Shown: piece by piece, positions 10,147 through 44,889 of the stretch | Layout: each line of letters opens with the position of its first letter | How positions within the stretch are numbered: the stretch's first letter is position 1 | DNA from: Rosa chinensis | Lineage: Eukaryota; Streptophyta; Magnoliopsida; Rosales; Rosaceae | Assembly (NCBI RefSeq): GCF_002994745.2 | Contig: NC_037088.1 | Coordinates: 48,885,897 to 48,949,896 of the forward strand | DNA: 64,000 bases | Reading direction: 5' to 3' | Notes under the pieces: generated by a model | Database searches by the model: none | What the model was told of the DNA's origin: nothing | What the model saw: the letters and a program-made list of their open reading frames with translations, nothing else | Program-made: the position numbers and the translations under genes

Positions 10147-10295
10147 GAATCTTTTCTTTATACAAGTGTGATTACAAGTTGTTCCTACAAGTCAGGAATC
10201 TATTTACTATCTAAAATACATATAAGGAAGGCTACAGCTAAATGATAAATCAATCTGCAATAATATGGGAGATAAGGCTGATTACTTTCCTTACA
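10147..10295 (-). repeat. Copia 5' LTR, outer part
   Basis: This continues the LTR broken at 4907. Positions 10214-10295 repeat bases 1-82 with one visible difference (GATAAGG against GATATGG). It ends ACTTTCCTTACA, the TG...CA end of the LTR. The two LTRs being nearly identical over 82 bp suggests the copia insertion is not very old, in spite of its broken coding region. Confidence 0.85.
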
Positions 10296-11336
10296 CAAAA
10301 TAGATATAATGAACCTCAAGGATGAATAGAGGTAAAAATAGCTTTGAAGGTAGTGGCTTCATATGCTTGGGGACTAAAGGTAAAATAACAGATTTAATGA
10401 ACCTCTCTCTGAGTGAAATTTATAGTTATATACGTTGCTCTTATGCTATACTATTTTCCAAAGCATTTGTTGAGTTTTGACATTATAGGCTCTACTCTTT
10501 CACTAGTTTCAAGCCTTGAGGCTTAGCATTTTCACCAAAATAAGGTATAAACTTGGTACAAAACAGAACCAGATTGGAGTAACAAAAATGCAAACCCCAA
10601 CAAGAGAAAAAGACTGAAAGAGATACAATAAACTAAAGAAAGAAGAGAAAAGACTGACCTTGAAGCCTTGAAGAGGAATAGGAAATGCAGAGCTCTCTTA
10701 AGTGTAAACTCTGAAAGTTAAAATTAGAATTCCTTTAATTAGTTTGTGCTAGTTCCAAGGAAATATAAAGATGAAGAAGAAGAAGAGTAAGAATGAGAAA
10801 GTAAAGTAGCTACATTCCAGTCTGGTATACATAAACTACATCAAATCACATAACATATTTATATGCTACTAAAAAAAACCTCGTTTGCACAGATTACTAA
10901 AACTAAATAACAACAGAAGCTCTTATTTTTGAACTTGATCCATGCCAAAGTAACAAACTTGAAACAAATTACATTACAAATGTAAGTCCCAAGCAATTCA
11001 TCAATCCAAAATACACATAAAGTTTCTCTCTAATCAAGAATAAATAAATCAATAACATTCAAGATTCCAAATAATCGAATATCACAAAATTGTCTATTCC
11101 AATTTTATCAGCAGAATTAATCCAGCAATGGAATGAGAAAAAAAACTATCATAATTTTTCTGGTACACAAAATTAGGTAGGGGGTGCAGATTACATAGTT
11201 TCCTAGATTAAAACAATGATCAAAGTAGTGCAAAATATGGCCAAAAATTGAAAGTGAGGTCAAGAGTTTCATACCTTTTGGGAGTTGTTTTTTAGCTCTG
11301 AGGATGGTCTATTTGTAATGTAAATACAGTAAAGAA
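10296..11336. other. About 1 kb with no recognisable gene
   Basis: AT-rich sequence between the copia LTR and a Helitron-like terminus. I see no long open frame, no repeat structure and no protein motif on either strand. Confidence 0.6.
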
Positions 11337-25004: not shown

Positions 25005-26169
25005 ATGAAAGAAATTGAATTGAGCACTTTGGGGAACTCTATGTTGCAAGTTTCATATGCTAGTCTCCTAAACGCTACTGATGGGTTTTCTTCAACTAAT
25101 TTGATTAGCATTGGCGCTTTTGGGTCTATGTACAAAGGAATTCTTACTGATGATGCACTTACTGTTTCTGTGAAGGTGTTTAACATATTACATCGAGGAG
25201 CTTCTAAGAGTTTCATCTTCGAATGTGAGGCATTATTGAGAAACATCAGACATCGAAATGTGGTCAAGATTCTAACTGCAGGCTCAACTATTGATTTCAA
25301 TGGTAATTAATGATTTTAAGGCTCTAGTTTACGAGTTCATAGACAATGGGAGCTTAAAGGAGTGGTTGCATCCATATACTGGAACCGAAGAGCTAATAGA
25401 ATCACCCAAAAGTTTAAATCTTTAAAGGTTTGACATCGCCATTGATGTTGCTAGGGCATTGGATTATCTTCACAACCACTGTGAAACACCGATTGTTCAT
25501 TGTGATCTTAAGCCAAGTAATGTTCTTTTGGACACTGACCTAACTGGAATTGTTTCCAACTTTAGGTTGTCATGGTTTCTCACAAAACGAACCACTAATG
25601 TTTATGGAAATCAGTCAAGCTCCATTGAAATTAGAGGATCGGTTAGTTATGCTGCCCCTGGTAATTTTTCTTATATGCTTCAGAATTTTCTCTTTCCTAT
25701 TTTACTCTTACATATTTCAATTAGAGCTATTTGATTTATGCACAGATGTAGTTACATATTTTTGTGATATATACTTTTGGAATTGTAGATCGAGTATGGT
25801 ATCGGAAGTGAGGTGTCCACATATGGGTATGGTCTACAGCTTTGGGATTATTCTGTTAGAAATGTTTACTGGGAAGAGACCACTGATCATATGTTCAATG
25901 ATAGCTTGAATCTTCATAATTATGTGAAGATAGCTCTCCGTAAACTTGTTTTCAAGATTTCATAATCAGTATTAGTTCTACAAGAAGGCACCGCTAATGT
26001 CACTGAAGCTCACAGCCAATTAAGTGTGAGAGCACAAAAAATTGAAGAGTGCTTGACTTTGATATTTGGAATTGGAATTGCATGTTCTACCGGCTCCCTA
26101 ACAAACCAAAAGGATATCAGTGATGTTGCAGCTGTATTGCAGTCCATTAGGGACAAACTTCTTGGCTAA

Positions 26170-27347
26170 GAAGGTTTAAAGTTATTACTGTTTTGTGAAG
26201 GCTTTTAGACAAGTTGACGTATTGTTGTATGCTTCAGATCGATATCTCCTTTGTTTTTCAGTTGTCATATGTTTTCTATGAAGTTTTCTTGCTGATATTA
26301 CAATGTCTGAAGAAATTACAGGTTATTACGGGAACGTACTACACCTTGTACTTGAACTATCTGATTGATGCCTTGAGCTAATTAAGAAAAGATTTTATTA
26401 CTGCTACATCTTGTATAAATTTTGGAGGTAATTTTAAAAGCATCTCCTATGGAGATGTCTTTAGGCTTGCGTCAAATTCCAATTTGACATGCGACATGAC
26501 AACCTTCATTTTTTGTTAATCTTACTCTAATCAATATGTCAAAATTGTATGTTATTTTAATATATTCTATTCTATTTATTTTTGTTTTGCTTATTTTGTT
26601 TGGGCTTGTGTAATTAATTTTTATCAAAATAAAATAGCAAACAGATCGCATCCTCCTCAACATTCAAAGGCTTTTATATAAACAGAACTGAAAAGAGAAA
26701 ATTTGACCGAAGGAAAAACCACAATGCAAAAAGAGGCCTTCTCTTTTCAGTAAATAATGATATAATCATCAAGGGTTAGCATCTCTCATAGGTAGTACAA
26801 GCTACGATCTTTGGCATTAACAACTTTTGAAATCTCATATCAGCTGGGTAGCCATTTCGTTACTGCGGCAACCATGGCCTCCTCCTCGAGTTCTCTCGAT
26901 GGAGAGTGAAACTTAAAAAATATGTTCTTTTTGTTTTTTACAGAAACATAAAATAAATGGTATGTTTTTTACAGAAACATAAAATAAATGATAAATGCTA
27001 ATGGGGGTTAAAGCCTGTTAACATAATTGACAGGTGTCGAATTTTGATTGAATTGACTTTTTATAATTGCAGATTTAGGAAGAAAGATATGTTCAACTGT
27101 TGTATTCTAGACTTCTTGGAGTCCGCAAATTAAGTTGTCAACTCAATTTATGCAAGTCAAGTCTTATTTTAGAATTCCTCTCCTGTTAGTCCTGTATATT
27201 TAATTGGCTACAAGTCAAGTCTTCTATGGAAAAGTCAACCTGCAACTGTTAAGCGAACCTTTCTAGCTCCTGTATAATATTTAGTTATATATGAATGCGC
27301 GCATCTGATGGAACTAACCAAGTCCACAACCAAAAATATCATCTGTC
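26170..27347. other. Intergenic, no gene seen
   Basis: AT-rich sequence between the two kinase genes. A small inverted repeat (CTGAAAAGAGAA at 26688, TTCTCTTTTCAG at 26740) could form a hairpin. Nothing else was recognised. Confidence 0.5.
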
Positions 27348-28696
27348 TTGAACTCACTCTCTCCACCATCCCCATCCGATGGTGCTCTCTTCGTTATTTC
27401 TTTGTTTCATAGGAAAGAAGAACAGAACAACAGGAAAAACTATTCTTACTTCTTAAAAGTTTCATATGAAACTCTTTCAAAAGCAACCGATAGTTTCTCT
27501 TCTGCAAATTTGGTTGGTGTTGGTAGTTTCGGGTCTGTGTATAAAGCTGTTCTTGTCATGCCATCCCATAAAGCTCAACTTGTTGCTGTGAAGGTGTTTA
27601 ACATGTTACGCTGGGGAGCTTCTAATAGTTTTATAGCCGAATGTGAGATGTTTAGAAATATCTGGCATCGCAACATCGTTAAGATTGTAACATCATGTTC
27701 AAGTGTTGATTTTAGTGGTAATGATTTCAAAGCTCTGGTTTATGAGTTCATGGAGAATGGAAGCTTGGAAGAGTGGTTGCATCCAACATTTGGAACACAA
27801 AATCCGGCCAAGAATTTAAATCTTCTTGAGAGGCTAGACATCGCTATTGATGTTGCTTGTGCACTGGATTATCTCCACAATCATTGTAAAACACCGATAG
27901 TTCATTGTGATCTCAAGCTGAGCAATGTTCTTTTGGATAACGAGTTGACTGGACATCTTTCTGATTTTGGATTGGCGAGATTTCTCTCGAAAACAAATAA
28001 CGTTGCTGCAAATCAATCGAGTTCAAGGGGGTCTGTTGGTTATGTTGCGCCAGGTAATTAGTTTTCTTCATATTCTGCACTACTTCCTTTCTCCTTTTGC
28101 TTTGGCTGAATTTGCTTTACTGGTAATTAATAATCAACATTGACACTTAATGCATGTTACAATACATGGTCTAATACTATTTGCAATGATCGATAGTGAC
28201 AAGTTCTAATTTTTGAATGGTAGAGTACAAAAAGGGAAGTGAGGCATCAACATATGGGGATGTCTATAGCTTTGGCATTCTATTGTTAGAGATGTTTACA
28301 GGAAAGAAGCCCAGTGACCACATGTTTCGTGACGACTTGAACCTTCATACTTTCGTGAAGATGGCTTACTTTGAGCGAGCTATAGAGATTGCAGATTCAA
28401 GACTATTTCTTCAAGAAGACAACCATAATACTACCACCAAGTACTGTGAGAGATTCTCATCGGAAATTGAGGAATGCTTGTGTTGGATATTTGGAATTGG
28501 AATTGTGTGTTCTAGCAAGTCTCCAAGAGAGAGAATGGATATGGGTTATGTGGTAACTAAATTGCAATACATTAGAAACATTCTGAACGCACTACATGGT
28601 TGTGCAAGGTCGAATTGCAACTGCATGGTTTGTCGACGCAAGATGAACGAACTAGCCGCACGGGCACAAAATCGTCTCAAACTTTTTTTTCTTTGA
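27348..28696 (+). CDS. Receptor-like kinase, kinase domain only
   Basis: Exon 1 (27348-28053) and exon 2 (28224-28696) join across a GT-AG intron so that APG changes to the normal APEY motif. The kinase looks complete: GVGSFGSVYKA, VAVKVF with the catalytic Lys, HCDLKLSN (non-RD, with Leu in place of the usual Pro), DFG, and YGDVYSFGILLLEMFTGKKP. The C-terminus is longer than usual and cysteine-rich (CARSNCNCMVCRRK). There is no LRR or membrane segment, and the first 37 residues do not look like a signal peptide, so the start may be wrong or the gene may be a 5'-truncated relative of the upstream pseudogene. If expressed, the product would be a soluble kinase. Confidence 0.72.
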
Positions 28697-30815: not shown

Positions 30816-32252
30816 AGAAGGCGGAGGTGGAAAAAAAAAAAAAGGTGTTTGGTTCTGGGCTGGGTTTCGGGTAATCGGAGAGATGGAGAAGAAGAGCTGT
30901 GGAGATTGTAGCGGAGAAGAAAAGAGTGAGGCGGCTCCGATCAGTGCGTCGGAGGTCTGGGTTGAAATCTAGGTGAAGAATCAAGCCTAGAAGAATAGGG
31001 ATTCATGAATCCAATGAATTGGCAATTTTGGGTTCGTGTAAATTGTACTTATGGTGCTGTAGTTCTCGTTGTTTCTGTTGTTAATCGGCCTTGATTATGG
31101 AAATCGAAGACCTGAATTATAGAGGAAAGTCTGTAAGGGATGAGGGCAATGAGAGAGATATGAAGCAACCCAGATAAGAAAACTAGCGGCTTCTAATTCA
31201 AAGACATAGTGGTGAGTCGCTCAACTCAGTTCAATCTTAGTCCCCCTTTTTTTTTTTTCTTCACCTTGCGATATATTTAGTTTAATGTTTGAGGAGTAGT
31301 ATAATTTGTTGGATTACTTATGGATTGGAATTCTCGTTGCAACTCTGAATTGACTCTGGCAATTTGTGATTCTGAGATTGAGCTGGTACTAAGAGTAATC
31401 GTGAACCTAAATGATCGATATTTATTAATTTAGATCTTGTCTCTGGAAATTTGGTGCATTTGTTAAGAGTTTAATTTTGCAAGAACCCGAAGAGCTAGAA
31501 ATCATTCATCAGTTTGTTTCAATCTTCAAAGAAAGCAAGGAACCAAGATAGTTGTTTTGAGAGTTCAACGAGAGGAGGGGAGATACGTGGAAGAAGAAGA
31601 GCTAAAAATAAAAAATAAAAAAATTAATTAAACAAAAAAAAAAAAGTAAGTGAGGGTATAAGAGGCATTTCAGTGTGTGTGGAATGCCACGTCATCGATT
31701 TAACTCTGATATCGACAGAAAGTTAACAGTAAAGGACGGATTGTGTGAAATTAGAGACTTTAGGGAGTATGCGGGTGAAATTGAAAAACGAGGGACTGAA
31801 ACATCGATACCCTATAAGTATAGGGAGTAAACAGTATTTAGTCCTTATATGTGGATCGGGTCAAAATTGTAAGGACAAATTTCGGTTTACTACCCTATGG
31901 TTTACACTCAACATCATATTAGTCTTTCCCTTTTAATTTGATCTGCAACACCCATATACTTTTAATTTCAATCAGCTGTGTCCAAATTTTTTTGAGGCAT
32001 CCAAATCGGACATAAAATGGTGATCTGGCAGCGATCAATTGATTCAGTGGAATCACTGTAAGGGCTAAATTTGACATTTCACTCAATTTTTCTTCCAAAA
32101 CTCACGAACAACCTAACCCAGTTGAAGGAAGAGGCATTTTGCAGAACTCATAACAGCCAAAATGAACACACTCTAAAACTTGGAATAACCCATTATCCAT
32201 TATTCAGTAATTCAAAACAGACTATTGGGTATCCAAAGCCCCTAATTTTTGA

Positions 32253-32657
32253 TTAACCTAGAGTCATCTCCACGCCTTCCATCACCGAAAACATGGTCCT
32301 CGCCGAAACCTCCAACTCCCTCGCCACTAGCTCATGCGGCGGCGGCAGCTCCTCATCCCCGTCGTCGTCGTCATCGTTATCGACCACGTCAGCAAGGTGC
32401 CCGTGGTTTTTGCACCGCTCTTTCATCATCGCCTTGGACATCACATTCATCGACGCTGAGTACTGCTGAAACCTTCTGAAAGGCACCGACTGGGTCTCAC
32501 TGCTACCATCGGAGGTTTCACTCAGCAGAGACAGCCTTGGAATCGAAGGGATGGGTTTGGAGGAGGAGGAGAGGGAGGGAAAGGAAGAAGCTTTTCTTCT
32601 CCAAAAGCTCGATTTGAGATTGTGAGTGTTGAAAGAGATCTTTCTCTCTATACACAA
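32253..32657 (-). pseudogene. S40/DUF584 senescence-regulator-like fragment
   Basis: The open frame contains RFQQYSASMNVMSKAMMKER, an acidic run DNDDDDDGDEELPPPHELVA and TMFSVMEGVEMTLG. This is the order of the plant DUF584 (S40) domain: a short proline/serine-rich start, acidic patch, PPHE motif, then an FSV-EGVGRTL motif that is altered here. The usual C-terminal part (KGRDLSRVRNAV) is missing. Function of the family (senescence and stress-linked, nuclear) is from general knowledge. Lying between MULE inverted repeats, this is a captured piece. Confidence 0.75.
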
Positions 32658-33362
32658 TTGTATCGCTCTGCAGATTGGAGGCTTTTCTCTATTGGCTCCG
32701 TAGGTATGTAAGTGTAGCTCTTTCTCTCTGTCTCTATCTTGCTCTCTTTCTTAATTCAATTTTGAGCTTTTTGGTTCCGGGGTTTGGGATTTTGGGGATT
32801 GGATTTTACTCCAGTATTGGCACATTTGTTTCAGAATTTTGTTGTTTGTTTTTCTTGTCTTCTTATGAATACAGGATTTTGTTTTGGTTTGTGTTTTGGA
32901 ATTGAAAGCAACAGTCTTGAGTAGAATTTGGTTTGGGGTTTGGTTGAAGTTCACAAGCTCGCCGCCAAGCTTAATCTCAGAAATCTACAACCGGTGTGCT
33001 GACTAACCGCTTGGCCATCGTGGTTTTAAAAACCCAGAAAGAGCTTGCAGAGACGACATGTTGAATGGTTAGTTTAGCTTGTGGAGTGAAATGTCAAATT
33101 TAGCCCTATGGTGGGCCCACTGAATCAGTTGATCGCTGTCAGATCACCACTTAAGGTTCAATTTAGATGCCTTAAAAAAATGGAGAAACTACACCCACCT
33201 CCTTGACCAAACTCTAAAACACAAAAAACTCCACTACATTTGTTTTTAGACACTTAAGGACATTTTGTCTTTAGCAAGTTTCACTTTCTCTTCAAGTTTT
33301 TATCTTCCTTTCAGTAAAAAGAAAATTGACGGAGCGTAGTGGGCCCATGCTTTTGAATTTGT

Positions 33363-33683
33363 TTGTTTAACCATATTGCAGGTATAAATCCATCCTCTAT
33401 ACTCGAAGGTAAACGGTTATTTTTACTATTCATAATTTCGATTGTTGATAGACTTGAGTTGATAGCTATCTGCAAAATTACTACTAAGGAACTGCAAAAG
33501 GAGAGAGAGAAATTGAGAAAATTAAAAATCTATAGAGATAATCTTAGTAGAGATTCTCCCAATTACTGGGATATTATCTATAGACTACAGACTAGAATCT
33601 ATAGAATAGAAGAGGAGATAGATAATCTCTTAGAAGTTCTGGAAGAGGAACAAAAACCTCTTGATTATTTGAGCATTGGTTAG
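33363..33683 (+). CDS. Pararetrovirus small ORF1, coiled-coil protein
   Basis: 106 residues. The last 70 are highly charged and helical (KELQKEREKLRKLKIYRDN and on to EEEIDNLLEVLEEEQK), likely a coiled coil. It precedes the polyprotein by 56 bp, with the primer binding site in the gap. Position and coiled-coil character recall the small first ORFs of badnavirus-like members of Caulimoviridae, but I recognise no specific relative. A good 3' splice site (TTTAACCATATTGCAG) falls at 33367-33382 inside the first codons, so the real protein may start later or be made from a spliced RNA. Confidence 0.5.
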   Translation: MFNHIAGINPSSILEGKRLFLLFIISIVDRLELIAICKITTKELQKEREKLRKLKIYRDNLSRDSPNYWDIIYRLQTRIYRIEEEIDNLLEVLEEEQKPLDYLSIG

Positions 33684-33696
33684 ATCCGCACATCAC

Positions 33697-33708
33697 TGGT
33701 ATCAGAGC
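33697..33708 (+). other. Pararetrovirus minus-strand primer binding site
   Basis: TGGTATCAGAGC, complementary to the 3' end of initiator Met tRNA, as used by plant pararetroviruses. It lies just after ORF1 and 32 bp before the polyprotein start. Confidence 0.8.
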
Positions 33709-33739
33709 TTGTAAATAGCTCAAGGAGAACCCCTCCTAA

Positions 33740-36700
33740 ATGGGGACAATGTCAGAATTGTTATTAGAGAAAATAAATTCTCTACTGAAATCTTCTGATG
33801 AGAAATATCAGAAGCTGTTACTAGAAGTATCTAGATGTCAGTCGACTCTAGAAAAATTACCAGCTATAATCCACCAATTAGAAAGATTGGAAAACAAACT
33901 GGATTATATCAAGGATCTTCCAAAAACGGAAGAAGAAAAACTAACAAGTGTTAGTAGAAAAATCAAAGAACAGCAAAAAATGCTAGATTCTATACTGAAG
34001 GACAAGAAAGTGCCTACAGTAAAAAAGAAGACTAATGGATTCAAACCATTAGAAAAACCAGACACAAATCGTGTTCCAAACATGATTTTTCTGGAACCAT
34101 CTACTAGTCAGACTAGTATCCGGTATGAAAACCCGGAAAAAAGAGAAATGAAGATGTTAAGCATCTTTGGAAAAAAGAAAGGAGTACAGCTCCTTAATGC
34201 TGAAGAGTTCGAATTCAACGAAATTGAACAAGAGGTAAAAAACTCCTCCATTCCAAAATTAGATTTCAAACAAATCTACAGAAAAGGAAAGTTTGATTTG
34301 ATGGATAGCCATCATTTTAAACTACTAGAGATTACAACTCCAGCAACAGCGGGTGGAGAGACTGATCTTCTACTAATCACTCCAGCAGAAGTAGCCAGAG
34401 CTCAAGCAAAGAAGTATCAATTTATGCATATTGGAGCAGTCCAAGTAGGCATAAATCTGCTTGCACGCGAAGGCATAAACTGTTCGGTCCTATGTGTTCT
34501 ACAGGACAACAGGTTAACAGACTTCCAAGCTAGTCTGTTTGGGACACTTGAAGCATCCTTGTGCGATCAGATAGCATATTTCAACTGCTTCCCCAACTTC
34601 ACCACCAGCCTGAAAGATGCAGCTCACTGTCTCCGACTGAGAGTCAAGACAGATGGCGTATCCATGAAAGAAGATATGCAAGAACTTGCAATAGTATATA
34701 GAATATACTATAAATTGATGAGTACTACAGTAGCCCCTAAGACAAGGATAACGAATATCCCAGGTCTTACTACTGGATTCCTCACCAATCAGAAGAACCA
34801 TTCACAACAGATCCACAAGGTTACTTGGAATGAAGTGACTTTTCCTCTTGAATGGAAATTATCCGGTCCAAAAAAGCAGCCAGAAAGAGCAAAAGCAAAG
34901 ATCTACGAGAGTAGAAAGACTGGAGAAATTAGTCTTAATTTTGACAGTCACAGAAAAAGTGATGTCTGTCCTGAGAACCTCAGGATAAACAAGAATAATC
35001 TTCTGAGAAGAAGCTACAGCACTAGGGAAGCTAGTGTTAGTGGTATAAAACCCACTATTGAAGAACCAATTTCTGAAGAAGAATTGGAGGCTGATCTGAA
35101 CAGACCAATCAATATGTTCAGAGCTGAGAGGCTCTATGAACTCTATAAAGAAGCTGAGAATTGTGAAAATTCTGAACGATTAGAAAAACTAATCGAGGAA
35201 ATGAAAGAATTCAAAATCAGAAAGACGAGAAAAGTCTTTCCTTATCAGGATATTGAAATGGAAGAAGGAGAAAGCTCCAGAACTTTCATTAGCAGAGAAA
35301 AAGGGAAGGTAAAACTCCCATTACAGAAAGCCCCCACGGGTAAAAAAGGAGAAAGAAATTCCCAAAGATTTGTCCCAGAGGACAATCTGCCTAGAGTTCC
35401 TATCACTAACTACGGCATCTGGTTAAATCTAGATAAGAGTCTAGATAAAAGAAAAACCATTGACCAATGGGTAGATAGCCTGATGATGGCTTCTGCACTT
35501 ACCCTTGGCAAATTTGAAGCACCAGACCTGCAGGTGTACTATGAAACTACTCTCACTGGAGTAGCAAAAAAGTATTACCTATCCTTCAAAGAAACTGCCA
35601 GAGGAAGAGACTGGCTTGAAGAAATCAAAAATTCAAAATCTCCGTATGATTTTGCAGTACCACTGTACGATCAGTTCTGTGGAGATCTTTCAAATCTGAG
35701 TGAAAAAGCCAAAGAAACGGCAAAATCGAATATCTATGCTCTCAAGATCTGTGACATGAGATATTTCGAAGAATACCTTAATGAGTTTCAGGAATATTAC
35801 TGTACAATTGGTGAACTAGAAAATACTGATCTAGTTAATCTGTTGCACAGGAAACTCCCTGAACCATGGAGAACAGCTGTGAGAGAAAGCATAGCTGAAA
35901 AACCAATTGAAAGATTTTCAGTTGGAGGAATTGCCGACAGAATCCGGCAATTACTGAAGGAGCAATGCAAAGCCAATCTTAGAGCTAAGATGGCCAAGAA
36001 ACAACTCAAAGGAGTTGAAAATTTCTGTTATGGAATACTGGATATGCCCACAAACTGGGGATGTCATGAATCCAAATTCCACAGAAAAAAGAAAAAAGAA
36101 AAATATTACTCTAAAAAATTCAAAAAGAGTAATCAGAAAAGAGATTGGAAATTCAATAAGAGTTCCAATTACAAGAAACAAAAGGATGAAGATCCTAAAA
36201 AGAAATTCTTCAAGAAAAAGAAGAATACTAATACTCATCAGCATAAACAACCAAGCAAGAAAGCTTGCAGATGTTGGTTATGTAAAGCTGAAGGGCACTA
36301 TGCCAATGAATGCCCTGAAAAGGGTAAAAGATCTACTAAAGCTCTCTTCGAAGAATATGAGCAAATAGTAGAGGTAGCAAACATGAAAGGCTACGAAATA
36401 GCCTATTCTGATGATGAAGATGATGACAGGTCAGTCTACTCTGCCTGGTCTGAAGAAGAAATTTCATCAGATGAGTCTGAGATCGATTCTGAAGTAGAGT
36501 ACTTCGAATCCAGACAAATGAATGTTTTGAGAATCAAAAATTGGGAAGAAAGCAAGACAGAATCCTTCATGTCTTCTTATCAGGTGAACCCGGGTACATT
36601 CGTTTGTGACTACTGCTTATGTCATGAAAAGAATGGTCTCCCTATGTTTTGTGAAGAGTCTAAGAAGACTTATCATAAAGAATGCTTCATAGCTGAAGCA

Positions 36701-39700
36701 AGAAGAAAAACCAAAAATGGTCTTGTCAGCCAGTTGGTTGAGCAAGAATATGAAGAATATTTCGCTGAACAAAAGGCGAAAGAAGTGGAAACTCTGTTCC
36801 AGGAAACCATGGAACCATCTTCCTCGAAAAAGGAAGAAATCATCGATGAAGAAAAAATCAATGAAGATATTGAACTGGTTGAAATACCAGAAAATAGAGA
36901 ACTGGTGAAACCACCAGAAACTGTTCATCTCTTAGAACGACAAGAGGCTACTGAAACATGGGATCTACTTGGCCAACCATCAGGCAAGTTTGATTATAAA
37001 GTCAGATATGACCCTCCGTCATGGTTCAGTGACCCAGACATCAAAGAGATAATTCCTACAAACTGGGATGATACAAAACCTTCTAGTTCTGATAAATCAC
37101 CTCATCCAGAAAAAGTTCCAAAAGAAGAATGCAAACCATTCATTCCTAAGGAACAAGCTCAGGAAAATGAGCTTCATCAATCGAAAGTCGTCTCTACAAG
37201 TAGATACAGCAACTACATAGAGATTGGACTCAAATTCCCTGATTACAGAAAATATCATCTACATGCCTTTGTAGATAATGGATCAGGTTTTACAGTTGCA
37301 AAAAGATTTGCAATTCCAGATGAACTCTGGAGAGAAGATAAGAAAAAGTCTGCTACTGGTGTTACATTTGATGGAAGCCATCTCACCATGAAAAAAGTAG
37401 CAAAAAATGTTCATATCACCATTGGTGGAGGAACATTTATCATCCAGAATGTTTGGCAATCTGAAGGCCAAGGATCTGATTTCTTGTTGGGAAATGATTT
37501 TATTCTCCAACAACGATTCATTCAGGATGAAGAAGCGATAGGCTTCAGGAAAGGAGAACGGGTGTTCTGGGCAGACCGCCTCACACAAGCCAGAACTGTG
37601 GTCGGTCCCGGTTTTACTACTCAGTATCAGAGATCGCAACAGAATAGTGGTGATCTTACCCCCTACAAACCAAAATTCGAACCCATACTCCAAATCAAGC
37701 AACAAGAAGAATTACTTGTTGAAGAATCTTCTGAAGAAGAAGAAGAAACTAGTGAAGATGAAGAAGCTAGTTTCATCCATGAGCATAACCTCAAACACTT
37801 TCAGAACAAGCTTGAGTCTCAGCAAATTCCCACTCTTGAAAAAATCAAGAAAACACTAGAGCAAAATGTGGATACAAATCCTCAGAAGTTTTGGGAAAAA
37901 GACCCAGTGGTCTGTGAATTGAAATTGCATGACATGAATGCTATCTGCCATGTCAAAGCCATTCCTCATTACAAAGAGGAAGATCAAAAAGAATTCAGAA
38001 AAGATATTGAAGATCTCCTGAACAAGAGATTAATTCAACCTTCCACTAGCCCTCATCATGCTCCAGCATTCTACGTGAGAAATCATGCAGAAAACCTACG
38101 AGGAAAAGCTAGAATGGTTATTGACTACAGAGATGTCAATAAAAAGACTGTCAAAGACGGTTATCAAATTGCTCAAGTAAGAGTATTGATTAACCAGCTC
38201 AGAGGAGCCAAAGTCTTTTCGAAGTTCGATGCAAAGTCGGGTTTCTGGCAAGTCAAGATGCATCCTGAGAGCATACCTCTCACTGCATTTGGAACACCAC
38301 AAGGCCATTACGAATGGCTAGTAATGCCTTTTGGTCTAAAGCAAGCTCCCTCAATCTTCCAAAGAAAGATGGACAACATCTTCAAGCATGTGGCAGAGTT
38401 CTGCGTCGTTTACATAGATGACATCCTAGTCTTCTCCAAAACCAAAGAAGAACACATGAAACACCTCCATGAGGTAGTAAAGCTGATAGTTCAACATGGA
38501 ATCATCCTAGGTGAAAAGAAAATCTTCTTTATCCTTGATGAAGTTGATTTCCTAGGAATAAACATCAAAAATGGAGTAATAAAACTCCAACCTCATATTC
38601 TTGAAAAGATCTGGAAGTTCCCAGACAAAATTCCTGATGCTAAGAGTCTAGAGAGATTCCTTGGTGTCATAAATTATGGGAGAGATTTCATCCCAAAAAT
38701 CTCAGGGTTAACAGCGATGTTATCTCCTAAGACAAGTTCCAAAAGAAAATGGAACTTCACAGAAGACGATGAAAAAATCGTGAAGCAGATAAAAAATCTC
38801 TGCAAGAACCTCCCTCCTCTGCAACAACCAGAAGAGAATGATGAAATTATCCTCCAGACAGATGCGAGCGATAATTATTGGTCCGGTGTGGTTCTGGCAA
38901 AGACGCCTGGAACTAACATTGAAAAGATCTGTAAATTTTGTAGTGGCAAGTTCAGCCCTGCAGAACTAAATTATCCCACAGGGGAAAAAGAAATTTTGGC
39001 TGTCAAGAAAACGATTTTAAATTCTCCAGCTTTTCTTGGAAAACCCTTTACTGTCCGCACCGATTGTGCCAGAGTAAAGAATTTCAAAAATTTCAAACTT
39101 GATAAAGCTGCTGATAGAGGAAGATTAGCAAACTGGCAATTATTTCTTAACCAATATGATTATAATGTTGAATTAATTGCAGGAAACAAGAATTATCTTC
39201 CAGACGCATTGACCAGGGAAATGGCAATGTTCAGCCAGAGAGAAGACGACGAAGGTCGTAATCCCAGAAGCAGAAGGACTGGGAAAGAACATGAGCTTCA
39301 AGAAGATCCTATGGAAACCAAAGAAAAGGTTCTTAAAAGGTTTCTGCTAAGTCCTAAAGGACTAGCCTCAACTGATCAATCCCAGGGTAAAGGATTGGCT
39401 AGCCCGTCTCAAACGGCAGACGGTAAAGGCTCATCAAGACCGTTGATGGCTGCTGCTTTGCCAAAAAGCAGACCAACTCCAACTGGAGTCATAAATGTTT
39501 TTAATTATGAATTAAGAACTTTTGACACTCCTGTGTTCAGAACTGGCAGGAGACTAGCTTATCACCAGAAGGCAATCCTGGATAATCTCTTATTTGCTTT
39601 TCAAGAAAGAAGCAGTGGTCTAATGTTCCCGGCACTCTTTGCACTAGCTGAAGAACTATATGAGAACGCCAGACCACAATTTGAAGAAAGTCATATACAG

Positions 39701-40531
39701 CAGAGTGCTGTAAGAAAAGAAAAAATTCTCTTCCTTGAAAGTCCAGAAAGTGCTAGAGTTCCTGTCATGGCACTTAATGAATCAGACTGGCATGAATTCC
39801 ATAGTCTGATAGGAAGACATAATCCAGAAGACCTAGTTCCTCCAACTCTCTTTATTGTTTCAGGTCCTTATGTTGGAAGATACCTGGTTAATGTTCAGAG
39901 TGAACATCCTCAAAAACACAAGCTCTGGCTTGTTGAAAATGGTTTTGTCCATAATCTGTGGACTAAAACAAATGATGATCTAAAAGGTTTGCCGCCTATC
40001 ATTGTCAATACAGTCAAAAATGTAAGAAAAAATGACTGTATGCTTCGACTGAAGTTCAGATCCACTCCTCCAGAATGGATCCAGAAGGCAAACGGTGAAG
40101 TTGAATATATTCCTCCTTATCATTATGTAAGAATTATTCAAAGGAAATATCTTCAACCAGCCTGTGTAGGGTACAATGGCCAACCAAACTCAAGCATCCC
40201 GTGGATGAAAGCCATGACTCTAGAATATATCAAAAAGATCATCTCTGAGGATACCTACAATACCTTCCTGGCAGCAGGAGAGAAAATTATCATCACTGCT
40301 TACGATCATCCTGACGTAGTCAGCAGTGACTTGTTCCTATCTCTTACCAGAAAAGAGATAGATTCGACACTGGCATGCTTACGATGGGTGGAAAAACTTG
40401 AAACTGACAACCACTACAAGATGTATGTTGATACAGATGTCGAAGACAATGCAACAACAGTAAGGATGGCCCAGGCAGATAACGACTCGTTTGTCCTTGG
40501 TCACAATTCAGAAACCGACGAGAACATGTGA
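33740..40531 (+). CDS. Endogenous pararetrovirus polyprotein, uninterrupted
   Basis: 2,263 codons without a stop. Domains in order: N-terminal coiled coil (about 1-95); 30K-type movement protein (about 150-385); capsid region ending in a basic stretch and a zinc knuckle (C845, C848, H853, C858); a second Cys/His cluster near 953-980; an aspartic protease centred on D1179, where the motif reads VDNGSG; reverse transcriptase with YIDD at 1558-1561; RNase H with its first Asp at about 1708, ending near 1825; then about 430 residues of unknown function. Movement and capsid domains plus RT/RNase H without integrase identify Caulimoviridae. The arrangement is badnavirus-like but with the upstream coiled-coil ORF fused on and an extra tail. 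The open frame suggests recent integration or selection. Confidence 0.9.
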   Translation: MGTMSELLLEKINSLLKSSDEKYQKLLLEVSRCQSTLEKLPAIIHQLERLENKLDYIKDLPKTEEEKLTSVSRKIKEQQKMLDSILKDKKVPTVKKKTNGFKPLEKPDTNRVPNMIFLEPSTSQTSIRYENPEKREMKMLSIFGKKKGVQLLNAEEFEFNEIEQEVKNSSIPKLDFKQIYRKGKFDLMDSHHFKLLEITTPATAGGETDLLLITPAEVARAQAKKYQFMHIGAVQVGINLLAREGINCSVLCVLQDNRLTDFQASLFGTLEASLCDQIAYFNCFPNFTTSLKDAAHCLRLRVKTDGVSMKEDMQELAIVYRIYYKLMSTTVAPKTRITNIPGLTTGFLTNQKNHSQQIHKVTWNEVTFPLEWKLSGPKKQPERAKAKIYESRKTGEISLNFDSHRKSDVCPENLRINKNNLLRRSYSTREASVSGIKPTIEEPISEEELEADLNRPINMFRAERLYELYKEAENCENSERLEKLIEEMKEFKIRKTRKVFPYQDIEMEEGESSRTFISREKGKVKLPLQKAPTGKKGERNSQRFVPEDNLPRVPITNYGIWLNLDKSLDKRKTIDQWVDSLMMASALTLGKFEAPDLQVYYETTLTGVAKKYYLSFKETARGRDWLEEIKNSKSPYDFAVPLYDQFCGDLSNLSEKAKETAKSNIYALKICDMRYFEEYLNEFQEYYCTIGELENTDLVNLLHRKLPEPWRTAVRESIAEKPIERFSVGGIADRIRQLLKEQCKANLRAKMAKKQLKGVENFCYGILDMPTNWGCHESKFHRKKKKEKYYSKKFKKSNQKRDWKFNKSSNYKKQKDEDPKKKFFKKKKNTNTHQHKQPSKKACRCWLCKAEGHYANECPEKGKRSTKALFEEYEQIVEVANMKGYEIAYSDDEDDDRSVYSAWSEEEISSDESEIDSEVEYFESRQMNVLRIKNWEESKTESFMSSYQVNPGTFVCDYCLCHEKNGLPMFCEESKKTYHKECFIAEARRKTKNGLVSQLVEQEYEEYFAEQKAKEVETLFQETMEPSSSKKEEIIDEEKINEDIELVEIPENRELVKPPETVHLLERQEATETWDLLGQPSGKFDYKVRYDPPSWFSDPDIKEIIPTNWDDTKPSSSDKSPHPEKVPKEECKPFIPKEQAQENELHQSKVVSTSRYSNYIEIGLKFPDYRKYHLHAFVDNGSGFTVAKRFAIPDELWREDKKKSATGVTFDGSHLTMKKVAKNVHITIGGGTFIIQNVWQSEGQGSDFLLGNDFILQQRFIQDEEAIGFRKGERVFWADRLTQARTVVGPGFTTQYQRSQQNSGDLTPYKPKFEPILQIKQQEELLVEESSEEEEETSEDEEASFIHEHNLKHFQNKLESQQIPTLEKIKKTLEQNVDTNPQKFWEKDPVVCELKLHDMNAICHVKAIPHYKEEDQKEFRKDIEDLLNKRLIQPSTSPHHAPAFYVRNHAENLRGKARMVIDYRDVNKKTVKDGYQIAQVRVLINQLRGAKVFSKFDAKSGFWQVKMHPESIPLTAFGTPQGHYEWLVMPFGLKQAPSIFQRKMDNIFKHVAEFCVVYIDDILVFSKTKEEHMKHLHEVVKLIVQHGIILGEKKIFFILDEVDFLGINIKNGVIKLQPHILEKIWKFPDKIPDAKSLERFLGVINYGRDFIPKISGLTAMLSPKTSSKRKWNFTEDDEKIVKQIKNLCKNLPPLQQPEENDEIILQTDASDNYWSGVVLAKTPGTNIEKICKFCSGKFSPAELNYPTGEKEILAVKKTILNSPAFLGKPFTVRTDCARVKNFKNFKLDKAADRGRLANWQLFLNQYDYNVELIAGNKNYLPDALTREMAMFSQREDDEGRNPRSRRTGKEHELQEDPMETKEKVLKRFLLSPKGLASTDQSQGKGLASPSQTADGKGSSRPLMAAALPKSRPTPTGVINVFNYELRTFDTPVFRTGRRLAYHQKAILDNLLFAFQERSSGLMFPALFALAEELYENARPQFEESHIQQSAVRKEKILFLESPESARVPVMALNESDWHEFHSLIGRHNPEDLVPPTLFIVSGPYVGRYLVNVQSEHPQKHKLWLVENGFVHNLWTKTNDDLKGLPPIIVNTVKNVRKNDCMLRLKFRSTPPEWIQKANGEVEYIPPYHYVRIIQRKYLQPACVGYNGQPNSSIPWMKAMTLEYIKKIISEDTYNTFLAAGEKIIITAYDHPDVVSSDLFLSLTRKEIDSTLACLRWVEKLETDNHYKMYVDTDVEDNATTVRMAQADNDSFVLGHNSETDENM

Positions 40532-40743
40532 AGCAGCAGGTGTAGAAAACACCGAAAGTCCTTTTGGATTTTTCCTAAAAGTGACTTTTGCTTTTCAAAA
40601 AGCAGGTGAAAAACATTTCACCTAAAAGGAATCTGCTTTTTCCCCGGCCGACCTCCACCAGCAGGAGCACTAAGAAAAGCAGGAAATCACAGAGTCGTTC
40701 TGTACATTTTGTTGTTTTGAATTGTAATTTGAGTTCCGCTCCC

Positions 40744-40750
40744 TATATAA
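40744..40750 (+). promoter_or_regulatory. TATA box of the pararetroviral pregenomic RNA promoter
   Basis: CCCTATATAAGGAGC lies about 210 bp after the polyprotein stop, in the place and form of the main caulimovirid promoter. Transcription would start near 40775. The preceding 200 bp hold repeated AAAAGCAG and GACTTTTGCTTTT motifs that could bind factors, but I cannot assign them. Confidence 0.75.
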
Positions 40751-41004
40751 GGAGCTTTAGCTTCCCTTAGAAGGCATTCGAAGTAGAAAACATCAGTCTA
40801 ATATTCGAAAATTGAGCAGAATCAGATTCTCTCAAAAATAAGGAAGCCATAGTAGCAGCAGTAGCAGGTTTTATATAAATCTCTTTATGCAAGTGTGCCT
40901 CTGATTCCAAGTAAGTATTTGTAATCAAGTTATGAGTAGCTAAGCAGCTTCTAGCTGTTTGCCCAAGAGTGAGGCTCTGGGTTCTGTATCTGTATTTATG
41001 TTTG

Positions 41005-41014
41005 AATAAATAAA
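41005..41014 (+). terminator. Polyadenylation signal of the pararetroviral RNA
   Basis: AATAAATAAA lies about 230 nt after the predicted transcription start. In this virus family the signal lies shortly downstream of the promoter, giving a terminally redundant RNA. A GT-rich stretch (CAGTTTGTGCTC) follows. Confidence 0.65.
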
Positions 41015-41595
41015 TTCAGTTTGTGCTCAGTACCCCGTCACAAAAATATTTTGCTGTTTCTGCATTTATGTTTTGGTAACAGTAGCAGTTAGTAAGCAGT
41101 AGCAAGCTTTCTATTTTATTTTAAAAGCTGACTCTTATCATACTAAGGCAGCAGTGATTCCGCCCTGATAGTAGCCGCTTAGACAGGAAGTCGTTAGGCG
41201 AAGTTGTGGCATGTTGAAGGCTAGTCCTTAGGCTGATACTGTGTTTAGTCTGGAAAAGTAAAATATAAGCTGATACTGTGTAAAGAACAAAAAAAAAAGG
41301 TAAAAGGAGAATAGTGTGTGTCCTTAATTGTATAAGGGAAAAGGTTGTGGACTTTGTTGTCAAAAAATCTATTGTCTGGTAGTGCTTTGTAGTTAACCCT
41401 AAAAAAATTTGGTATGGTTGATTGAAATTGAGAGCATAGAGGTGTTGCTGCTCAAATTAAAAAGGGACGGACTAACATTTGTTAAGTGTAAACCACAGGG
41501 TGATAAATTAAAATTTTTCTAAATTGTAATACCTCACCTCAATTTCATTAAGGTTTAACATCACAATTAAAAGAGAGATATATAAAAAATATGAG

Positions 41596-41898: not shown

Positions 41899-41918
41899 AA
41901 TTTTGCAAAAAAAAAAAA

Positions 41919-42345
41919 GGTTATTATCACAAATGGTACCTAAACTTATCATCTATTTTATCGATGGTACCTGAACTTCAATTTTGATACAATCAGTACC
42001 TGAACTTTTTCGATTTCATTTTAAATGGTACCTAACGCCACATTCGATCACTATTCCGGCCAAAAAAGCCAAATCTAAAAAAACAAAAAAACAAAAAAAC
42101 AAGTTCAAGGCAAGTCTATTACCAAAAAATCATCACTATATATGATCGCAACCCTCGAAATCATCAAAAATCATCACTATGATCGCCTCCCATGCCGTTT
42201 TTAGTCGTAATAGAGATCGGAGGTGGCTCTAGGTACCATTTAAAATGAAATCGAAAAGTTCGGGTACTGGTTGTGATCAAAATTGAAGTTTAGGTACCAT
42301 CGATAAGATTGAGGTATAGTTCAGGTACCATTTGTGATAATAACC
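41919..42345 (+). mobile_element. MITE, copy A (inverted relative to copy B)
   Basis: Begins GGTTATTATCACAAATGGTACC and ends in its inverse. Repeated GGTACC-TGAACTT blocks lie in both arms. It matches 44201-44627 as a reverse complement along its whole length. Flanks are A- or T-rich, so the target duplication cannot be read. Confidence 0.85.
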
Positions 42346-42647
42346 CTTTAAAAAATGATTATCTTCCACTAAGCAAGAGAAGAGTCAACTTGAATCAATC
42401 TAAGACCATCAACCATTCACAACTGCAATCAAATTCCACAACAACTTCAGTAATGCTTGAGCTCTTTTATCTGCAAAAGTTAAGATTCCTCCGTGCAAAA
42501 ATTTCTGCAGGACGTACATGAAAATCTCTGGATCTATCAATGTAAATGTACATTATAATATGAAGAGATTGTAATTTGCCGTTTGCATAAATTAGCACAT
42601 TCGCAACTGAATAGGGAACAACAACGGCAAGAACAGAGGGTCAGAAG

Positions 42648-44091
42648 CTACTTCAACTTTGTGCTTAAGTCAGAAAGCTGAAGAATCTGAATCCTGGAGA
42701 TTCTAGCAGCTTCGTCTCTCTCTTCCTCTGTATTGTACCCCCAATCCCCTAATACAATTAAACCAGAATCAGCTATCATAGGCGAATAAAGCATAAACAA
42801 CAATTGATGACAGATAAGTGAGAGTAAATGTGTGATAACACAGGGTAGAAAGAAGTGTGCCTAGATACAAGCTCCAACCATCCAATTCAGGTTCTTTGAT
42901 AACATTCTTTAGGGTTGCCAGTCTATCTTCCACAAAGCTGACCAAAGTTGAATATTATTGATCTCATTCGAAGGTACTAGGTTATAGTAATAAGCATTAA
43001 CCAGCATAGAATGCAGAATGTCAGGTCTCAAAACACTCTATCGCGGTCACAATCATATTAGAACATGCTCTGTTATGTTAAATATTTAGCAGAAAATTAC
43101 GTACGGCAGTTTCAGCCCTTGATGTTCTGGTTTCTTCTGAAGCATCTTCAATACTTCTACCTTAGGACTGGAAGAGGAGTTTCATATTACATGCACACAT
43201 ACTAGAGAGACAGTAAAGTTTCATGGTATGGCCACAGGTTAAGTGCCAAAATACCAATAACAGACTAATATCAAATTAATACCATACTCAGAACCAAGAC
43301 CAAAGATTCTTTCAGGTGGTATTGTAACTCCTGCAAGTTCTCGCAGTACTAAAGCGTCAGCAAATCGGCCCTGCAATAGGTATAAGAACAGAAAATAAGG
43401 GGATGGGAAGATGATAAAGGCAAACTGCGTACTGTACCAGAAAGTCCGCTAACTGCTGGTTTAATATAAAATCTGTGAATAAAGAATTGAGGGTCCAGAA
43501 AAAACAGAAACTCTAAAAAAAAGTGCTTGCCTCAGGTTCATACGTGCTTTGTGGTGACTATATATATTGTCGAGCTTGCAAATCTTAGAGCATCAGATAC
43601 ACCTGTATATAATCTGCACGCAAACTGCCTTCTACTCAGTTATGCATAGGGCTCTACCAGCAACTTTGAGAATACAGTAAAACTATGCTAGACAAGAATC
43701 CATTTAACCCAAATTTTGAAATCATACAACAGAAACGAATGCTATTTTCTTTGCTTCAGATTTTGACCATGCAATCTCAAGCAAAGACACATCAAACACA
43801 TATATATACACGATCACTTTGCAAAATATCCGAATTGGGTACCTAGTTGCACCAATCCAAGTATTCAAGTCCTGATCCATCCACTCATCCCTGAACTTTC
43901 CAAACAGATTTACCAGAAGATCCCTTTCCTCACCCCATTCCTCCATAATCACAGGCTTCAATGCTTATCCCCTTAACTGTAAGCCCTTCTGCAACTGAGG
44001 ACTTTCTTATAGAAGGAATTCTCATCTCCAGAAGTAACCTCACAAGTAAAAGATTCTCATACCCAGTTTCCACCACAGGTCTCACGAATAT
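42648..44091 (-). pseudogene. HAD-like hydrolase, 5'-truncated
   Basis: Six minus-strand exons can be followed: 44091-43843 (VRPVVETGYENLLLVRLLLE, RKSSVAEGLTVKG, then after a frame break LKPVIMEEWGE and DEWMDQDLNTWIGATR), 43602-43544 (GVSDALRFASSTIYIVTTKH), 43376-43290 (RFADALVLRELAGVTIPPER, FGLGS), about 43163-43105 (PKVEVLKMLQKKPEHQGLKL), about 42947-42870 (FVEDRLATLKNVIKEPELDG) and about 42750-42648 (GDWGYNTEEERDEAARISRI to a TAG stop). This fits a conserved plant HAD-superfamily protein. The first exon with the DxDG nucleophile motif is missing, and about 15 nt plus the frame are lost near 43965-43975. MITEs flank both sides. Activity is unlikely. Confidence 0.78.
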
Positions 44092-44200
44092 TCTTCACTA
44101 TCAATCACTCAATTCCTAATATACAAAATGGTTTCGAGACATTTTTTTTGTACAATTCCATTTACTTATTTACTCATTCATTCATGACATTTTTTTTTTT

Positions 44201-44627
44201 GGTTATTATCACAAATGGTACCTGAACTATACCTCAATCTTATCGATGGTACCTGAACTTCAATTTTGATCACAACCAGTACCCGAACTTTTCGATTTCA
44301 TTTTAAATGGTACCTAGAGCCATCTTCGATCACTATTACGACTAAAAACGGCATGGGAGGCGATCATAGTGATGATTTTTGATGATTTCGAGGGTTGCGA
44401 TCATATATAGTGATGATTTTTTGGTAATAGACTTGCCTTGAACTTGTTTTTTTGTTTTTTATTTTTTTAGATTTGGCTTTTTTGGCCGGAATAGTGATCG
44501 AATGTGGCGTTAGGTACCATTTAAAATGAAATCGAAAAGTTCAGGTACTGATTGTGATCAAAATTGAAGTTCAGGTACCATCGATAAAATAGATGATAAG
44601 TTCAGATACCATTTGTGATAATAATCC
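44201..44627 (-). mobile_element. MITE, copy B
   Basis: Reverse-complement partner of 41919-42345, with the same terminal GGTTATTATCACAAATGGTACC. The pair brackets the HAD-like fragment. It lies just upstream of the truncated 5' end of that gene. Confidence 0.85.
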
Positions 44628-44889
44628 TTTTTTAAAATTCCCTTAACCTACACTGCCTATGTCCTTCAAAAGCTTAGCAGAAAATCAACCTAAATTTGAT
44701 ACTACTAGGGGGGGCGCAATTTTTTATTAGAGGGTTTCCTTGAAAGAACAAACTTTTAAAAATTTTACGGTAATAGTCGATATTCTAATTATTCTTGTAT
44801 TTGAATAAGAAGAAACGTCAATCTGATCCATTGAGAAGTCTACCTAAATATTACCATGAGAAGTTCACTGTGGCCTGGTAGATAGAAAA

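What the first reader, a model, noticed from the sequence alone, without database searches (positions are those of the whole stretch)
33182..41399. A whole pararetrovirus between MULE-like ends with a 9-bp target duplication
Seen: the insert lies exactly between two copies of TAAAAAAAT, and the pre-insertion sequence can be checked against the opposite arm of the host MULE. Its ends are diverged inverted repeats about 95 bp long, and nearly all of the interior is caulimovirid. Known: endogenous pararetroviruses integrate by end joining and do not make 9-bp duplications, while Mutator-like elements do. Inference: either a MULE took up a viral genome and moved it, which would make the virus part of a Pack-MULE, or a virus integrated into a small MULE. 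A MULE spreading pararetroviral genomes would be a new way for such viruses to multiply in a genome.
Basis: partly seen in the sequence, partly recalled or inferred. Interest (0 to 1): 0.9.

Follow-up and report, generated by a model that had tools for sequence, protein, structure and literature searches.

The report
Plant virus that inserts like a transposon
The window holds one of at least 150 copies of a reverse-transcribing plant virus that sits in its host genome between fixed, transposon-like ends, with a 9-base target duplication at nearly every site checked, which is not how such viruses are thought to enter plant chromosomes.

Summary
In detail: the 8,218-bp insert (33182-41399) has a 9-bp duplication, diverged inverted ends and a visible empty site. 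It is no one-off. Of 59 distinct loci whose ends I read (33 + 6 + 20), 52 carry perfect 9-bp, A/T-rich duplications. At least 150 reverse-transcriptase (RT) copies at 97% or more exist. Between copies the RT piece is under strong constraint (dN/dS 0.073), its disabling changes are private, and ends and interiors recombine, so copies descend from a replicating virus, not from passively copied cargo. Promoter, poly(A) signal and primer site make sense only with the two ends joined in the leader of a circle. Three diverged end families all give 9-bp duplications. No non-viral element with these ends was seen (0 of 20 checked). Most likely a Mutator-type transposase supplied in trans integrates the viral DNA at ends the virus itself carries; that transposase was not identified. 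Neither 'a Pack-MULE captured a virus once' nor 'a virus landed in a small MULE' fits.

The parts
33173..33181 (.). Left copy of the 9-bp target duplication TAAAAAAAT
33182..33330 (+). Left terminal sequence (family A), inverted-repeat arm, tip GGAGAAACTACA
   Evidence: 34 places matched over essentially the full length, each with a right end about 8 kb away
33363..33683 (+). Short open frame in the leader; frameshifted in many copies, so probably not a conserved protein
33697..33708 (+). Primer-binding site TGGTATCAGAGC, complementary to plant initiator tRNA-Met (motif recalled)
33740..40531 (+). Viral polyprotein frame (2263 aa): movement protein, coat domain, zinc knuckle (weak, below cut-off), protease, reverse transcriptase, RNase H, then about 430 aa of unknown fold; no integrase or transposase match
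40744..40752 (+). Caulimovirid-type TATA box TATATAAGG (type recalled); start of the genomic RNA inferred about 30 nt downstream
   Evidence: read from sequence
41005..41014 (+). Poly(A) signal AATAAATAAA; with the TATA box it bounds an inferred terminal-redundancy region of about 250 nt
   Evidence: read from sequence
41148..41226 (+). Leader stretch of 79 nt conserved (77-94%) in the other end families, just inside the variable right end
41250..41399 (+). Right terminal sequence (family A), inverted-repeat arm, tip TTTGTAGTTAACCC
41400..41408 (.). Right copy of the 9-bp target duplication TAAAAAAAT
31880..32090 (.). Opposite arm of the older host inverted repeat that received the insert; shows the empty site

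Best explanation
This is one integrated copy of a caulimovirid (pararetrovirus) that carries transposon-like ends in its own genome. Shown: whole viral genomes lie in the host chromosomes opened at one fixed point, between terminal sequences that begin as inverted repeats, with a 9-bp A/T-rich target duplication outside. Shown: copies descend from lineages whose reverse transcriptase stayed under selection. Inferred: the virus replicates as a circle by reverse transcription of an RNA that runs from the promoter at 40744 across the joined ends, the primer site and the ORF back to the poly(A) signal at 41005, so each replication copies the joined ends. Inferred: a DDE transposase of the Mutator type, made by a host MULE, cuts at those ends and inserts the viral DNA with a 9-bp stagger. 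The integrated copy is split in its leader, so it could yield genomic RNA only after excision and joining of its ends; whether that ever happens is unknown.
For: Fixed ends: 34 of 34 full-length left ends have the right end at 7.8-8.3 kb and the viral RT piece between. Duplications: 30 of 34 perfect in that set (29 of 33 without a duplicate contig), 5 of 6 in a set with diverged left ends, 18 of 20 in a sample drawn by RT, not by ends. Control: 24 of 28 non-homopolymer sites match their own partner, 0 of 756 cross pairs do; 18 of 19 against 0 of 342 in the second sample. Target: the nine positions are 83-100% A/T, flanking positions 34-83%. Selection: mean dN/dS 0.073 over 528 pairs of 33 copies; shared variants 29 nonsynonymous to 130 synonymous and no stop, private ones 74 to 64 with 4 stops. 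Every stop and frameshift in the 500-codon RT piece is in one copy only. Recombination: L106 is 98.3% like the window at the ORF start and 78% in the left 180 bp, c1-c24 the reverse. Layout: TATA box, poly(A) signal and primer site fall in caulimovirid order only across the joined ends. MULEs: at least 150 MULE transposase domains in the genome; MULE duplications are 8-11 bp and some MULE families lack inverted repeats (PMC6446971, passages).
Against: No non-viral element with the family C tip was seen among 20 of the 42 listed tips without a listed RT, so the link to MULEs rests on duplication length, target composition and geometry. Beyond the first 20 or so bases the arms of families B and C align no better than shuffles reach (C 21-22 against shuffled means 21-23; B 26-30 against maxima 33-37), and family A only just exceeds them (53 against 51). 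Head-to-tail joints that a circle or concatemer would leave were not found: 0 for family A with up to 12 bases between, 0 for family C with up to 20, exact patterns only. The 430-aa region behind RNase H lies where retroviral integrases lie and could not be folded, so a viral recombinase is not excluded. Seven of 59 loci lack a perfect duplication at the nominal tips. One single-base deletion in the ORF start is shared by c7 and c30.
Confidence: 0.62

Rival explanations
1. Pack-MULE: a MULE took up a caulimovirid genome once and has since spread it by ordinary DNA transposition; the virus is passive cargo.
For: Precise ends, 9-bp duplications and many copies are what MULE transposition gives; among the closest neighbours nonsynonymous and synonymous counts are about equal.
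Against: dN/dS 0.073; no stop in the RT piece in 30 of 34 copies, neither stop nor frameshift in 24 of 34, at up to 6% divergence from the window; disabling RT changes private; ends and interiors recombine; three diverged end families on RTs all at least 97% like the window's. Dead cargo would not do this.
Confidence: 0.1
2. The viral proteins include a recombinase of their own, in the 430 aa behind RNase H, that integrates the DNA with a 9-bp stagger; resemblance to MULEs is convergence.
For: The region lies where retroviral integrases lie; its fold is unknown (pLDDT 34.6); the ends occurred only on viruses in what was checked.
Against: No Pfam match at E up to 5 and no PDB sequence match better than E 0.12. 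Most LTR elements with an integrase make 4-6 bp duplications (PMC12440569 abstract), not 9. Caulimoviridae are described as lacking an integrase (PMC10377300 passages).
Confidence: 0.18
3. A virus integrated by end joining into a small MULE, which then moved.
For: It would explain MULE-like ends around a virus at one locus.
Against: 34 of 34 places with the full left end carry the viral RT piece, 20 of 20 family C tips checked carry viral sequence, no empty element of this family was seen, and the ends complete the viral leader.
Confidence: 0.03
4. The element is no longer a virus but an intracellular retrotransposon derived from one, which replicates by reverse transcription and re-enters chromosomes through a MULE transposase. 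This overlaps with the best explanation: it changes what replicates, not how it inserts, so the two confidences do not add up to one.
For: At least 150 copies in one genome, and no episomal relative known to me (recalled); recombination and selection would look the same.
Against: The movement protein domain is still encoded, although its constraint was not measured.
Confidence: 0.3

Closest known systems
Endogenous caulimovirids (zendovirus, petuvirus, florendovirus groups)
   Same: Domain content, tRNA-Met primer site, promoter and poly(A) layout, many copies in one genome
   Different: They are held to integrate mainly by end joining or together with retrotransposons (PMC10377300, PMC8256270, passages); precise ends with 9-bp duplications are not mentioned in the passages I read. 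The genus of this one was not tested.
Mutator-like elements (MULEs), Pack-MULEs
   Same: 9-bp duplications, A/T-rich targets, ends that begin as inverted repeats
   Different: No transposase inside; the content is a virus under selection, and the ends were seen only on the virus
DIRS retrotransposons
   Same: Reverse-transcribing elements that use another class of recombinase than the usual integrase (PMC12440569 passage)
   Different: They encode a tyrosine recombinase and, as I recall, make no such duplication
Teratorn (piggyBac-like transposon fused with a virus, medaka)
   Same: A virus whose spread in a genome runs through DNA-transposon ends (PMC10175614, start of abstract in a search listing; that the virus is a herpesvirus is recalled)
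   Different: A DNA virus of fish that carries its transposase (recalled); not reverse-transcribing

Membership tests
Caulimoviridae | MP, coat, aspartic protease, RT and RNase H in caulimovirid order | tested here: met
Caulimoviridae | tRNA-Met primer site, promoter and poly(A) signal giving a terminally redundant RNA from a circle | tested here: inconclusive
   motifs present in sequence; RNA and circle not seen
Caulimoviridae | Episomal circular DNA in particles | not testable with these tools
   no reads or particles at hand
Mutator-like element | 8-11 bp target duplication outside the ends | tested here: met
   52 of 59 distinct loci perfect 9 bp
Mutator-like element | Terminal inverted repeats (long in many, absent in some families) | tested here: met
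   Family A 53 of 90 in register; B and C 13-14 of the first 20, not beyond shuffles over 160 bp
Mutator-like element | MULE transposase inside, or ends shared with an autonomous MULE | tested here: inconclusive
   none inside; comparison with the host's MULE ends not carried out
Pack-MULE | Captured sequence carried as cargo without selection for its own function | tested here: not met
   RT piece constrained, dN/dS 0.073
LTR retrotransposon or retrovirus | Long terminal direct repeats, integrase, 4-6 bp duplication | tested here: not met
   no direct repeat of 20 bases or more between the two ends, no integrase match, 9-bp duplication
Zendovirus | Place in the RT tree with the Fragaria vesca reference | not tested
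   reference sequence not held; protein search switched off. Suggested only because zendovirus RTs are reported from Fragaria, Rubus and Rosa (PMC9794742 passages)

The most novel reading that the evidence does not exclude
A lineage of reverse-transcribing plant viruses has turned the two arms of its own RNA leader into transposon ends, and uses a Mutator-type transposase of the host as its integrase. Integration is then a regular, reversible stage of its cycle: circle to chromosome with a 9-bp stagger, and by excision back to a circle, since only the joined ends give a complete leader.
Probability: 0.4. Interest if true: 0.96.

Novelty: categorically new. Interest (0 to 1): 0.92.

Why it matters
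How caulimovirids enter plant chromosomes is described as speculative (PMC10377300, passages), with DNA-repair end joining as a favoured view. Here a whole lineage in one genome enters by a reaction that uses fixed ends and duplicates its target, so its copy number, its ends and its target choice become explainable and testable. Beside the LTR integrase and the DIRS recombinase it would be another way for a retroelement to reach the chromosome, and would show a virus using a host's transposase as its integrase. It also warns that repeat annotation may file such copies under either virus or MULE and miss the link.

Tried and rejected
Chance ends: rejected by random pairs and cross-pair controls. 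Recent segmental duplication instead of insertion: 290-bp flanks of the 34 copies are unrelated except for c11/c29 (one locus twice, c29 on a small contig), a repeat shared by c0 and c9, and the two flanks of c18 with each other. Search of viral contigs with an RT piece: 21 pattern matches, none confirmed. Fold of the 458-aa C-terminal piece: unusable, pLDDT 34.6, so no fold search was made. RNA duplex of the two arms as separate strands: -55.9 against -42.4 +/- 4.9, 5 of 500 shuffles as good; suggestive of a leader hairpin, not used as proof. Small ORF 33363-33683 as a conserved gene: rejected, frameshifts in many copies, two of them shared by six copies each.

Papers: search listings; passages only, in PMC10377300, PMC9794742, PMC5766536, PMC6786968, PMC9719215, PMC11359110, PMC13308828, PMC8256270, PMC12440569, PMC6446971. 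None of those passages describes 9-bp duplications or inverted-repeat ends for a caulimovirid. This covers open PMC papers only, not Repbase or subscription journals.

Rows dropped or limits: c29 left out of dN/dS and of the cross-pair test as a duplicate of c11. The RT-drawn sample was every 6th of about 121 listed RT hits not already among the 40, picked by hand from the 150 scored of 5291 candidates, so old, decayed copies are not represented. In one search the ends of families B and C were set by where copies stop aligning and by a shared 9-mer near there; a few other chance 9-mers also appeared, and the tips kept were those common to the family; one search then tested fixed places. s11 had a right end but no left end. 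c5, c10, c25 and c28 have 2, 3, 1 and 5 mismatches at the nominal tips; c25 has, by eye, a perfect 9-mer one base further in, not counted among the 52. L104/L110 gave none.
Full report
What is there. The insert at 33182-41399 lies between two copies of TAAAAAAAT. The opposite arm of an older inverted-repeat element around it shows the same place with one copy only. The two ends are inverted repeats in exact register, 53 of 90 matching, against a mean of 23.7 and a maximum of 42 among 20,000 random pairs. Inside is one frame of 2263 aa whose pieces hit movement protein, caulimovirus coat, aspartic protease, reverse transcriptase and RNase H. No transposase or integrase family matches any piece searched.

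The host. The window is part of a 515,083,735-base genome in 53 contigs; the contigs C1 to C7 met here are 50-90 Mb long. This fits the Rosa chinensis assembly described in PMC6786968 (512 Mb, seven pseudo-chromosomes; passages), where Caulimoviridae make up 1.25% of the genome.

It is a family with fixed ends. The left 149 bp matched 40 scored places of 142 candidates, 34 of them over essentially the full length. I read both ends of all 34 (loci, fetches). All 34 have the right tip, at an element length of about 7.8-8.3 kb, and the viral RT piece between, 94% or more like the window's. 30 of 34 have a perfect 9-bp duplication at the nominal tips; c5, c10, c25 and c28 do not, though c25 has one when the tip is read one base further in. 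c29 is the same locus as c11 on a small contig. Without it, 29 of 33 match, and 12 of 1056 cross pairs do, all among homopolymer sites: of the non-homopolymer sites 24 of 28 match their own partner and 0 of 756 cross pairs match. The nine duplicated positions are 83-100% A/T, the flanking ones 34-83%. The other six hits have a diverged left end with the same right end (cut short by a base or so in L110); 5 of 6 have perfect duplications.

A sample not chosen by its ends. A 220-aa RT piece gave 150 scored matches of 5291 candidates, all 97-100% identical, so at least 150 copies exist. I took every 6th of those not already seen, 20 loci, and read both ends. They fall into three end families on nearly the same virus. 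Family A is that of the window (3 loci and a fourth with the right end only). Family B has left tip GGGATAATGACC and right tip, reversed, GGGGTTGTGCCC (5 loci). Family C has GGGTTAATGCTC or close variants and GGGGTAATTCCC or close variants (11 loci). 18 of 20 have perfect 9-bp duplications: 3 of 4, 5 of 5 and 10 of 11; the eleventh C locus matches at 8 of 9. Own pairs match in 18 of 19, cross pairs in 0 of 342. Altogether 52 of 59 distinct loci have perfect 9-bp duplications.

How strong the inverted repeats are. In B and C 13-14 of the first 20 bases match in register; 20,000 random pairs gave 8 with 13 or more. Over 160 bp the local alignment of the two arms does not exceed shuffles in C (21-22, shuffled means 21-23) or B (26-30, shuffled maxima 33-37); family A just does (53, maximum 51) and its variant A' nearly (44, maximum 45). 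So only the tips are common to all. The ends of B and C are related to each other beyond shuffles, A and B weakly on the left (45 against 42), A and C not.

The ends belong to the virus. The family C right tip, with up to one mismatch, occurs 118 times in the genome, its reversed control 0 times. Of the 100 places listed, 58 have one of the 150 listed RT matches 3.1-3.4 kb inside. Of the other 42 I fetched every second one, 20, and all 20 carry viral ORF end and promoter sequence, at 69-81% identity to the window. So in what I checked no element has these ends without the virus. I did not check the other 22 or the 18 unlisted places, and the left-tip count did not complete.

The copies descend from a functioning virus. 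In 34 copies the 500-codon RT-RNase H piece has a stop in 4, and neither stop nor frameshift in 24. Mean dN/dS over 528 pairs of 33 copies is 0.073; among the closest pairs it is about 0.2. Variants shared by two or more copies are 29 nonsynonymous to 130 synonymous with no stop; private ones 74 to 64 with 4 stops, about half of the neutral expectation. That fits viral selection followed by decay after insertion, with part of the private variation older than the insertion. In the RT piece every stop and frameshift is in one copy only. In the ORF start one single-base deletion is shared by c7 and c30, and the per-base count gives one shared stop-type variant there, although only one copy shows a stop codon; both count slightly against strict privacy. 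(The two insertions shared by seven copies there add up to nine bases and are one in-frame change.) The short leader frame is frameshifted in many copies and is probably not a gene.

Ends and interiors recombine. c1 to c24 are 97-99% like the window in the left 180 bp and 88-92% at the ORF start. L106 is the reverse, 78% and 98.3%. Template switching in reverse transcription would do this; simple copying of chromosomal DNA would not.

Why a circle. The sequence has a caulimovirid-type TATA box at 40744 and a poly(A) signal at 41005, both at the right end, and a tRNA-Met primer site at 33697, at the left end (motif types recalled). In the order promoter, poly(A) signal, leader, primer site, ORF, they form the normal caulimovirid plan only if the right end is joined to the left. 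The terminal sequences then lie in the leader, where caulimovirids have a long hairpin (recalled); in the window the two arms pair better than most shuffles. An integrated copy is therefore cut in its leader and cannot by itself give a terminally redundant genomic RNA. I looked for head-to-tail joints: none for family A with 0-12 bases between, none for family C with 0-20, exact patterns only. The bases at the left tip vary: GGAG, GGGG, AAGT, CAGG, GTGG, GAGG, TAGG and others, while AAACTACA stays. This may be the trace of imprecise joining, or free drift; I cannot tell.

Which recombinase. MULEs make 8-11 bp duplications, and some lack inverted repeats (PMC6446971, passages); this genome has at least 150 MULE transposase domains over the Pfam cut-off, all that were scored of 816 candidates. 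Most LTR elements make 4-6 bp (PMC12440569, abstract). That, the A/T-rich 9-bp target and the inverted tips point to a Mutator-type transposase in trans. It is inference. A recombinase in the unknown 430 aa behind RNase H is the main rival; its fold could not be predicted from one sequence.

Against print. The 2023 review calls the integration mechanism speculative, names DNA repair and retrotransposon routes as the two widely held views, and mentions a suggestion of a hijacked transposon-derived integrase (PMC10377300, passages). PMC8256270, PMC9794742 and PMC13308828 favour illegitimate recombination or repair (passages). Searches joining pararetrovirus, caulimovirid or Caulimoviridae with Mutator, MULE, Pack-MULE, transposase, target site duplication or terminal inverted repeat showed no report of such ends by title or abstract start. 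Most listed papers were not opened.

Grading. That this virus family is inserted with fixed ends and 9-bp duplications: about 0.97. That RT-based replication, not DNA copying, links most copies: about 0.85. That a Mutator-type transposase in trans does the insertion: about 0.65. That integration is a regular, reversible stage: about 0.4. I call it categorically new because I know of no kind that joins a reverse-transcribing virus with such an insertion reaction; a reader who counts only mechanisms proved at the bench may prefer 'new variant'.

Noticed in passing
31880-41530 without the insert: The host of the insert is itself an older inverted-repeat element (78% over 64 nt, 100% over another 24) with a gene-like open frame inside (32253-32657, minus strand); possibly a Pack-MULE with a captured gene fragment.
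   Followed up: partly
window 41148-41226; loci L114-L152 and L153-L172: A 79-nt leader stretch is conserved at 77-94% between end families whose terminal 200 bp differ strongly; it may be a packaging or translation signal.
   Followed up: partly
left tips of the copies and L101-L106: The first two to four bases of the left tip vary between copies while the next eight stay almost constant; may record imprecise joining or earlier insertion sites.
   Followed up: partly
window insert (c0) and c9 (L043, L017): Two copies lie in members of the same host repeat family, each in an A/T run, as if that repeat were a preferred target.
   Followed up: no
41915-44633: Next to the insert lies another inverted-repeat element with arms up to 94% complementary over 293 nt.
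   Followed up: no
1-83 and 10214-10296: 83-bp direct repeats, 99% alike, enclose Copia-type (RVT_2, rve) and LINE-type (endonuclease, RVT_1) open frames, perhaps LTR pieces of one nested element.
   Followed up: no
25048-28580: Tandem direct repeats, 71-84% alike, around a protein kinase frame (27348-28058); probably two receptor-kinase-like gene copies (only the second copy was matched to Pfam).
   Followed up: no
L008 2034-3051: Beside copy c7 lies a second stretch of the same virus (81% identity) in the opposite orientation.
   Followed up: no
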